Source: an uncultured Bacteroidota bacterium (GTDB lineage: Bacteria; Bacteroidota; Bacteroidia; Chitinophagales; Chitinophagaceae). From it: a stretch of 64,000 nt of DNA. Of this stretch, positions 56,268 through 57,205 are shown in pieces (positions within the stretch are counted from its first letter, which is position 1; the number at the start of each line of letters is the position of its first letter). A model generated the notes under the pieces. The model ran no database searches and was not told the origin of the DNA. It was given only the letters and a program-made list of their open reading frames with translations. A program made the position numbers and the translations under genes. Location of the stretch: positions 62,001 through 126,000 of the forward strand of contig CAIVEW010000095.1 of NCBI GenBank assembly GCA_903905065.1, read 5' to 3'.

Positions 56268-56607
56268 CTACTTACAGAATAACCGATCTGGACGTCTGAA
56301 ACTATCCTGCATTGAATTTATCTTTCTTCCAATTTTGTGTATTTGTGATAATGTAGTTTTGAATTTTCTTAAACTCCTCCTCAGTCCGAATAATATGATC
56401 ATGAAAGCGTTCTTGCCATTCAAATCGGGGATTAATCAAATGAGCTTGTTTCGTTACGGCGGATTTATAGGAACGCATTATGACAGAGACAGACCCTTTC
56501 TTAGGTGATATTGCCGCCATTGTTTCGTTTCTTATTATTTCCTCCGGATTATTTTTACCAGTTAGCGGAATCGTAATATCTGAATTCAACCCGACATTCT
56601 GCAAGGA

Positions 56608-56691
56608 ATCAGGATCATTGGGGTGCGTATCAGATGTGTTGTGTTGTGCATCTGAAACGTTGTGTTGTGTTTTTGAGACGTTGTAGTGCAA
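56608..56691. repeat. 21-bp in-frame repeat array 2 inside RAYT, continuous with a REP
   Basis: ATCAGGATCATTGGGGTGCGT / ATCAGATGTGTTGTGTTGTGC / ATCTGAAACGTTGTGTTGTGT / TTTTGAGACGTTGTAGTGCAA. Confidence 0.8.
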
Positions 56692-56697
56692 CGTCTC
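56675..56697. repeat. REP-like palindrome inside the RAYT coding sequence
   Basis: GAGACGTTGTAGTGCAACGTCTC, one arm mismatch. Confidence 0.85.
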
Positions 56698-56880
56698 TAC
56701 GGGAAGTTGATTGCTATTGTTAATGATGAGAATACCGTGTATATGATTAGGCATTACGGTAAAAGCATCCAATGTTACAAATCGAAAATGGTTGGGAATT
56801 TCCATCCAGCAATCCCATGCAATTCTTCCGATTTCCGATAATTTCATATCATAATCACTATCGCCATACAGGCCTACGTA

Positions 56881-56903
56881 GAGACGTTGCACTGCAACGT
56901 CTC
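56881..56903. repeat. REP-like palindrome inside the RAYT coding sequence
   Basis: GAGACGTTGCA-C-TGCAACGTCTC, perfect 11-bp arms. Confidence 0.9.
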
Positions 56904-57020
56904 CCTCGCGATCAGCAACCTCTCCCCCGCTATGAGCAACGTCTCCCCCGTGTTCAGCAACGTCTCCCTCGCGATGAGGAACGAATCCCTCGCGATTAGC
57001 GATGTCTCGTTTGAAGCTAG
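56895..57020. repeat. 21-bp in-frame repeat array 1 inside RAYT (6 units)
   Basis: CAACGTCTCCCTCGCGATCAG / CAACCTCTCCCCCGCTATGAG / CAACGTCTCCCCCGTGTTCAG / CAACGTCTCCCTCGCGATGAG / GAACGAATCCCTCGCGATTAG / CGATGTCTCGTTTGAAGCTAG. Confidence 0.88.
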
Positions 57021-57205
57021 CAAAACCTGCTCTGGAATGCGATGGCTCGACAGGAACGATTTCCCCAAAGAAATGTTCCTTATTCATTGTACATACGGTG
57101 ATGAAATAAGCAGCATTCCACCTGTAATCCCAATTTTTCAAACGGGCAGATTCGATCCTATACTGATGTTTGTATAGTGCCATGTTATACACTTTATTTT
57201 ATTAT

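What the first reader, a model, noticed from the sequence alone, without database searches (positions are those of the whole stretch)
56302..57192. RAYT transposase gene carrying its own REP palindromes inside the reading frame
Seen: near-identical palindromes GAGACGTTGCA-n-TGCAACGTCTC lie downstream (56247-56267), upstream (57206-57236) and twice within the RAYT ORF (56675-56697, 56881-56903), yet the ORF keeps its HUH motif (MPNHIHGI) and C-terminal region (WQERFHDHIIR...YIITN). The two internal REPs are read in different frames (VETLHYNVS and GDVAVQRLYV); two of the three frames through GTAGAGACGTTGCACTGCAACGTCTCTAC lack stops, so this palindrome can sit in coding DNA. Established: RAYTs are HUH enzymes linked to REP/BIME sequences. 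Inference: self-targeting, either as tolerated insertion or as an autoregulatory binding site in its own mRNA or gene.
Basis: partly seen in the sequence, partly recalled or inferred. Interest (0 to 1): 0.85.

Follow-up and report, generated by a model that had tools for sequence, protein, structure and literature searches.

The report
Transposase gene carrying its own hairpins
A bacterial transposase-like gene holds, inside its protein-coding part, copies of the DNA hairpin its enzyme family is thought to act on; this was already known for its subfamily, but here the hairpin's DNA letters prove strictly preserved even in relatives whose genome has no other copy, which suggests the gene needs it.

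Summary
Four REP palindromes sit within about 1 kb, two of them inside an intact RAYT (HUH/Tyr) gene, read in two different frames. The genome has about 29 copies. It is not private to this gene: REPs inside the ORF were reported for TnpA_REP subclass 2.4 (Quentin et al. 2018), to which this gene belongs.

New here: in an unbiased sample of Bacteroidota RAYTs, 79 of 100 carry an in-frame palindrome between the HUH and Tyr motifs. At least 50 different half-stems occur, often identical to the flanking REPs. The nucleotides, not the peptide, are kept: 441 of 447 degenerate codons are the REP codon (125 expected). In at least 11 genomes the only copy of that core lies inside the RAYT gene. In syntenic Flavobacterium orthologs (dS 0.4-0.9) the 24-nt core is unchanged with no second genomic copy. 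In the window, the N-terminal REP differs from its ortholog at 0 of 30 nt, while the surrounding insert differs at 80 of 189.

Best reading: a cognate cis-acting DNA hairpin embedded in disordered loops and maintained by selection. Binding and function are inferred. Recurrent tolerated insertion plus homogenisation remains the main rival where REPs are abundant. Verdict: new member of a known kind, with evidence against "merely tolerated".

The parts
56302..57183 (-). RAYT (TnpA_REP) coding sequence from the ATG at 57183 (MALYKHQYRIESARL...), 293 aa; the finder's GTG start at 57192 adds 3 aa
   Evidence: ORF; homologs start at the same Met; NF047646 E 1.2e-12; core pN 0.09, pS 0.53 against the same-genus ortholog
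56734..56754 (-). HUH motif MPNHIHG (residues 144-150), catalytic metal-binding histidines
   Evidence: P, H147, H149 and G invariant in 17- and 65-sequence alignments
56353..56355 (-). catalytic tyrosine Y277 in IQNYIITN
   Evidence: invariant column
56675..56700 (-). loop REP between the HUH and Tyr subdomains, sense GTAGAGACGTTGCACTACAACGTCTC, read as VETLHYNVS; 5' GTAG foot kept, 3' foot lost, one C.A mismatch
   Evidence: same site and frame type in most homologs
56878..56903 (-). N-terminal insert REP, sense GAGACGTTGCAGTGCAACGTCTCTAC, read as GDVAVQRLY; foot on the antisense strand
   Evidence: identical over 30 nt in the syntenic ortholog
56894..57008 (-). 21-bp in-frame tandem array (5.5 units), each unit = REP half-arm GAGACGTTGC + 11 nt, read as (R)EGDVA(D/E/H)
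   Evidence: TRF score 132; units; absent from the ortholog in L057/L257
56638..56684 (-). second 21-bp tandem repeat next to the loop REP, half-arm based, read as HNVSDAQ units
   Evidence: similar HNVSDTQ units in P0003
57206..57236 (.). upstream flanking REP (AGTAGAGAAGTTGCAATGCAACTTCTCTACT), both feet, 14-bp perfect stem
56247..56271 (.). downstream flanking REP (AGACGTTGCAGTGCAACGTCTCTAC)

Best explanation
The gene is an intact RAYT of subclass 2.4 (group 4) sitting in a REPtron. In this subfamily the cognate REP hairpin is an inherited, nucleotide-conserved part of the gene. It lies in disordered loops, where two of its three frames are open, so it costs the protein little. Shown: presence, position, cognate match to flanking REPs, conservation of nucleotides rather than peptide, and persistence where no other genomic copy of that core exists. 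Inferred: the DNA hairpin is a cis-acting site for the RAYT itself, bound when the gene is single-stranded, for example at the replication fork. Most likely this gives self-targeting or feedback control of the RAYT gene and keeps enzyme and substrate in one unit. In the window two such sites exist, and half-arms of both have been duplicated in 21-bp in-frame units.
For: Unbiased census with an N-terminal-only profile: 79 of 100 phylum-sample RAYTs have a palindrome in the HUH-Tyr loop; over all 210 RAYTs, 5.69/kb in loops against 0.092/kb in control ORFs of the same loci. Quasi-palindrome in 172 of 210 loops against 6 of 210 codon-shuffled. Internal and flanking REPs match at 35 of 59 loci, null 5.2, maximum 13 in 5000 permutations. 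50 different half-stems, always palindromic. Core type follows the RAYT tree: 77 changes against 135 shuffled. Peptide-defined test: 441 of 447 degenerate codons are the REP codon, 125 expected. RAYTs 55-76% identical, with 36-54% of same-aa codons different, share the 24-nt core with 0-1 differences. Flavobacterium orthologs syntenic over 3.2 kb, dS 0.39-0.88, core unchanged; in three of these genomes no second copy of that core. Five syntenic g83 loci keep different near-perfect palindromes at one site, each the only copy. Window versus ortholog: N-insert REP 0/30 nt, other insert sequence 80/189. Model: inserts mostly pLDDT below 60, core about 90.
Against: No binding or expression data. 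Some RAYTs with flanking REPs lack an internal one (L153, L155), and 38 of 210 loops have none, so it is not essential. In the window lineage the loop REP has a mismatch and has lost one foot, and the genome has about 29 REPs from which it could be refreshed. Stem and foot mismatches show no strand preference, so neither DNA strand nor mRNA is singled out. The sole-copy searches covered exact core classes and four core types at up to 2 mismatches only.
Confidence: 0.55

Rival explanations
1. Tolerated insertion: REPs insert wherever the protein permits; the flexible HUH-Tyr loop and the N-terminal loop accept them, and gene conversion with genomic REPs keeps them looking fresh. No function in the gene. 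This is close to the view in Quentin et al. 2018.
For: Inserts are low-confidence and fast-evolving. Two open frames are both used, 130:37. Internal REPs match flanking ones. The window genome has about 29 REPs. Some relatives lack it.
Against: Unchanged core in syntenic orthologs whose genomes hold no other copy. Few decayed intermediates. About 60-fold denser than palindromes in other ORFs of the same loci. In the own genome nearly all other examined REPs are intergenic.
Confidence: 0.25
2. The hairpin acts in the RAYT mRNA, for example as a translational pause or as a site where RAYT binds its transcript and represses it.
For: The REP is always transcribed with the gene. Transposase control by mRNA structure is known for ISPpu9 (PMC8450116, seen only as a search hit).
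Against: No sense-strand G.U preference among stem mismatches: 13 G.T against 12 A.C/C.A. TnpA_REP enzymes are characterised as ssDNA binders (PMC8266576). No Rfam match in the region.
Confidence: 0.1
3. Mutational upkeep: template switching between the arms (quasi-palindrome correction) keeps the palindrome perfect without selection.
For: Both arms change together in the g83 orthologs, and some stems extend beyond the REP feet.
Against: It would preserve symmetry, not the sequence. Yet one 24-nt sequence is fixed across syntenic Flavobacterium species and across families, GT[AG]G feet persist, and cores match the flanking REPs.
Confidence: 0.07
4. The encoded peptide (VETL.CNVS and the like) is the functional part, as a protein linker or motif.
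For: One frame is preferred 130:37, and VETL recurs in many homologs.
Against: At least 50 half-stems and two frames give unrelated peptides. Synonymous positions are as fixed as the others. The region is modelled as disordered.
Confidence: 0.03

Closest known systems
TnpA_REP / TnpA-Y1 subclass 2.4 (RAYT group 4), Quentin et al. 2018, PMC6006769
   Same: NHIH HUH motif, WQ motif, variable insertion between beta3 and alphaC, double-foot GT[AG]G...C[CT]AC REPs flanking and inserted in the gene without breaking the frame, Bacteroidetes host
   Different: This member has a second REP in an N-terminal insert and 21-bp arrays of REP half-arms. The paper presents the insertions as probably of little impact; the sole-copy and codon tests here argue that the nucleotides are maintained. 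The Y motif reads YIITNTQNW rather than YIxNNP.
REPs inside genes (Di Nocera et al. 2013, PMC3733652) and Rickettsia RPE elements
   Same: small palindromes read in frame within ORFs
   Different: there scattered through unrelated genes; here at one conserved site of the cognate transposase
E. coli TnpA_REP (PDB 4ER8) and the REPtrons studied by Corneloup et al. 2021 (PMC8266576)
   Same: best fold match of the model and only PDB sequence match; GTAG-foot hairpin substrate
   Different: group 2 and 3 enzymes; no REP inside those genes was found mentioned in the passages read

Membership tests
RAYT / TnpA_REP | HUH motif and single catalytic Tyr of the Y1 transposase fold | tested here: met
   H147, H149 and Y277 invariant; top fold hit 4ER8, E 6e-3, prob 1.00
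RAYT / TnpA_REP | NCBIfam NF047646 above curated cut-off | tested here: not met
   47.9 bits against cut-off 80 in two stretches, because the inserts split the core; a 185-aa paralog in the same genome scores 118. A model threshold, not a biological defining feature.
RAYT / TnpA_REP | gene flanked by REPs that recur in the genome (REPtron) | tested here: met
   REPs at 56247-56271 and 57206-57236; 29 genomic sites within 3 mismatches
RAYT / TnpA_REP | binds and cleaves REP ssDNA | not testable with these tools
   needs purified protein
TnpA-Y1 subclass 2.4 (RAYT group 4) | HuH motif NH[IFV]H and W motif WQ | tested here: met
   MPNHIHGI and FEWQERF
TnpA-Y1 subclass 2.4 (RAYT group 4) | Y motif YIxNNP | tested here: inconclusive
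   YIITNTQNW: Y, I and one N present, NP not; many homologs have YIENNP or YI..NP
TnpA-Y1 subclass 2.4 (RAYT group 4) | variable insertion between beta3 and alphaC containing REP sequence | tested here: met
   insert at about residues 156-216 with the loop REP; long disordered gap between strand 147-154 and helix 232-250 in the model
TnpA-Y1 subclass 2.4 (RAYT group 4) | no conserved C-terminal extension after the core | tested here: met
   the protein ends 16 residues after Y277

The most novel reading that the evidence does not exclude
Subclass 2.4 RAYT genes carry an obligatory-like, selectively maintained copy of their own recognition hairpin inside the reading frame. It co-evolves with the enzyme and persists after every other copy of that REP has gone from the genome: a transposase gene that is its own last substrate and probably its own regulator.
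Probability: 0.45. Interest if true: 0.72.

Novelty: new member of a known kind. Interest (0 to 1): 0.55.

Why it matters
What RAYTs do for their hosts, and why they persist in single copies, is open. If the internal REP is a selected cis-site, then REP-free genomes with an internal REP give a clean experimental system: one enzyme, one site, no background copies. It would also be a clear case of a coding sequence constrained by a DNA hairpin rather than by its peptide, and it would explain how enzyme and substrate stay linked through horizontal transfer.

Tried and rejected
Private insertion event in this gene: rejected, since most homologs have a REP at the loop site. Homolog ranking biased by the REP peptide: avoided by an N-terminal-only profile. 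Peptide-level conservation: rejected. mRNA-specific structure: looked for a sense-strand wobble bias, none; no Rfam match. Genome-wide homogenisation as a general explanation: rejected for the sole-copy genomes, not for the window's own genome. Complementarity beyond the REP feet: only weak excess, z 1-3. Strict one-to-one pairing of genome REP class with internal class: not clean; for example G417, G401 and G035 hold GTTGCA REPs although the sampled RAYTs there carry no exact GTTGCA palindrome in the loop. First genome-collection scan with the window protein alone found nothing; the alignment version worked. Pfam gave no hit. The 241-aa ORF overlapping another genomic REP (L021) looks spurious.

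Full report
What is there. The window (G000:C95:62001-126000, a 4.68-Mb Bacteroidota genome in 113 contigs) has a 293-aa RAYT gene on the minus strand at 56302-57183. It lies between an ORF that looks like a NADP-malic enzyme (57282-59585) and a small membrane-protein ORF (55467-56210); both identities are my reading of the translations. Four REP palindromes lie within about 1 kb: upstream 57206-57236, N-terminal insert 56878-56903, HUH-Tyr loop 56675-56700, downstream 56247-56271. The two inside the gene are read in different frames, phase 1 and phase 0. The genome holds 29 sites within three mismatches of the full REP, against none for the reversed pattern. One close RAYT of this type and three more distant ones are present. 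As ssDNA all four REPs fold into stable hairpins.

The gene is intact. HUH and Tyr are invariant with homologs. The same-genus ortholog (L057, identical to the gene in L257) is syntenic on both sides, and the protein core has pN 0.09 against pS 0.53, so the protein is under purifying selection. The model puts both inserts in regions with pLDDT mostly below 60 and the core near 90 or above. The best solved relative is E. coli TnpA_REP, 4ER8.

Prior art. Quentin et al. [quoted passage not shown] Di Nocera et al. 2013 (PMC3733652) describe REPs inside other genes. I found no paper in the held library that tests whether the internal REP is selected.

How general. To avoid choosing homologs by their REP peptide, I searched 398 Bacteroidota genomes with a profile of the N-terminal 88 positions only. 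I took 100 distinct RAYT ORFs from the listed matches of that search; 79 have an in-frame palindrome in the HUH-Tyr loop. Over all 210 distinct RAYTs the density there is 5.69 per kb, against 0.092 per kb in control ORFs on the same loci and 0.36 in the rest of the RAYT ORFs. Allowing mismatches, 172 of 210 loops have a quasi-palindrome scoring at least 8, against 6 of 210 codon-shuffled loops. The palindrome centre lies a median of 21 residues after the HUH motif. Loci in records labelled KSB1, Anaerolineae, Spirochaetaceae, Desulfobacterales and Uhrbacteria show the same.

Cognate match. There are at least 50 different half-stems between GT[AG]G and C[CT]AC feet. Internal and flanking REPs share at least 10 contiguous arm bases at 35 of 59 loci, null mean 5.2. 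Core type follows the RAYT tree: 77 changes against about 135 with shuffled labels. In some genomes, paralogs carry different internal REPs that equal their own flanks, for example G204.

Nucleotides, not peptide. Loops were picked by peptide alone, and codons inside the REP peptide were compared with codon use elsewhere in the same genes: 441 of 447 degenerate codons are the REP codon, 125 expected. Both open frames are used, 130:37. RAYTs only 55-76% identical, with 36-54% of same-aa codons different, share the 24-nt core with 0 or 1 difference.

Not just refreshed from the genome. In at least 11 of 52 genomes the only copy of the core class is inside the RAYT gene (G486, G023, G013, G124, G475, G172, G025, G224, G170, G161, G105, positions compared). 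Four Flavobacterium loci are syntenic over 3.2 kb with dS 0.39-0.88 for the pairs computed. The core is unchanged, and only the outermost foot codon varies. Three of these genomes have no second copy even with two mismatches. In genus g83 five syntenic loci carry different near-perfect palindromes at the same place, each the only genomic copy. One of them, L204, looks partly recombinant, so allele replacement rather than in-place change cannot be excluded there.

In the window itself. Against the same-genus ortholog, the insert sequence around the REPs differs at 80 of 189 nt, while the N-insert REP differs at 0 of 30. From the sequences, the loop REP differs at two central positions of its 23-nt GAGAC...GTCTC stretch. 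Both genomes hold many REPs of this class (17 and 23 exact cores), so homogenisation cannot be excluded here. The window copy shows wear: one mismatch in the loop REP and one lost foot in each internal REP. Half-arms of both REPs have been duplicated in 21-bp in-frame units; the N-terminal array is missing in the ortholog.

Mechanism. Shown: conserved position, cognate identity, nucleotide-level conservation, persistence without other copies. Inferred: the hairpin is a cis-acting DNA site for its own RAYT. I favour DNA over mRNA because stem mismatches show no sense-strand wobble bias (13 G.T against 12 A.C/C.A) and because characterised TnpA_REP enzymes act on ssDNA. Whether the use is feedback, self-processing or simply linkage of enzyme and substrate cannot be settled from sequence. 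Against a strict requirement: RAYTs with flanking but no internal REP exist (L153, L155).

Verdict. Observation confirmed. The added evidence makes the question of function directly testable.

Noticed in passing
window 56894-57008 and 56638-56684: 21-bp in-frame tandem arrays made of a REP half-arm plus 11 nt, one at each internal REP; similar half-REP repeat peptides in P0003, P0025 and L148. How half-arms get duplicated in units of 21 bp is unexplained.
   Followed up: partly
L184, L192, L209, L200, L204 (genus g83): Syntenic RAYT loci with different long near-perfect palindromes at the same loop site, each the sole copy in its genome; outermost pairs change together (GTCT..AGAC, ATCT..AGAT, TTCT..AGAA).
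   Followed up: partly
L119, L120, L121, L101 (Flavobacterium): Syntenic orthologs keep an unchanged 24-nt internal REP core; in three of the genomes (L119-L121) no other copy of this core was found.
   Followed up: yes
L201 (G007:C2:2299400-2303400): Three RAYT genes in a row, two with the same internal REP GTAGGGGCAATTCATGAATTGCCCCTAC.
   Followed up: no
L205 (G204): A RAYT with five REP copies (VETGLKPVCT) in a row inside the ORF and the same REP downstream.
   Followed up: no
L073, residues about 98 and 197: A RAYT ORF carrying the same REP in the loop and again near its C-terminus, where it extends the reading frame.
   Followed up: no
L153, L155 (same genus as the window): RAYTs with a short HUH-Tyr loop, flanking REPs (GGGATGCATCCC core) but no internal REP: a natural comparison group.
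   Followed up: partly
own genome G000, contigs C44, C16, C20: Three further, more distant REP-associated transposases and 8 copies of another palindrome class (GACGCAA..TTGCGTC).
   Followed up: no
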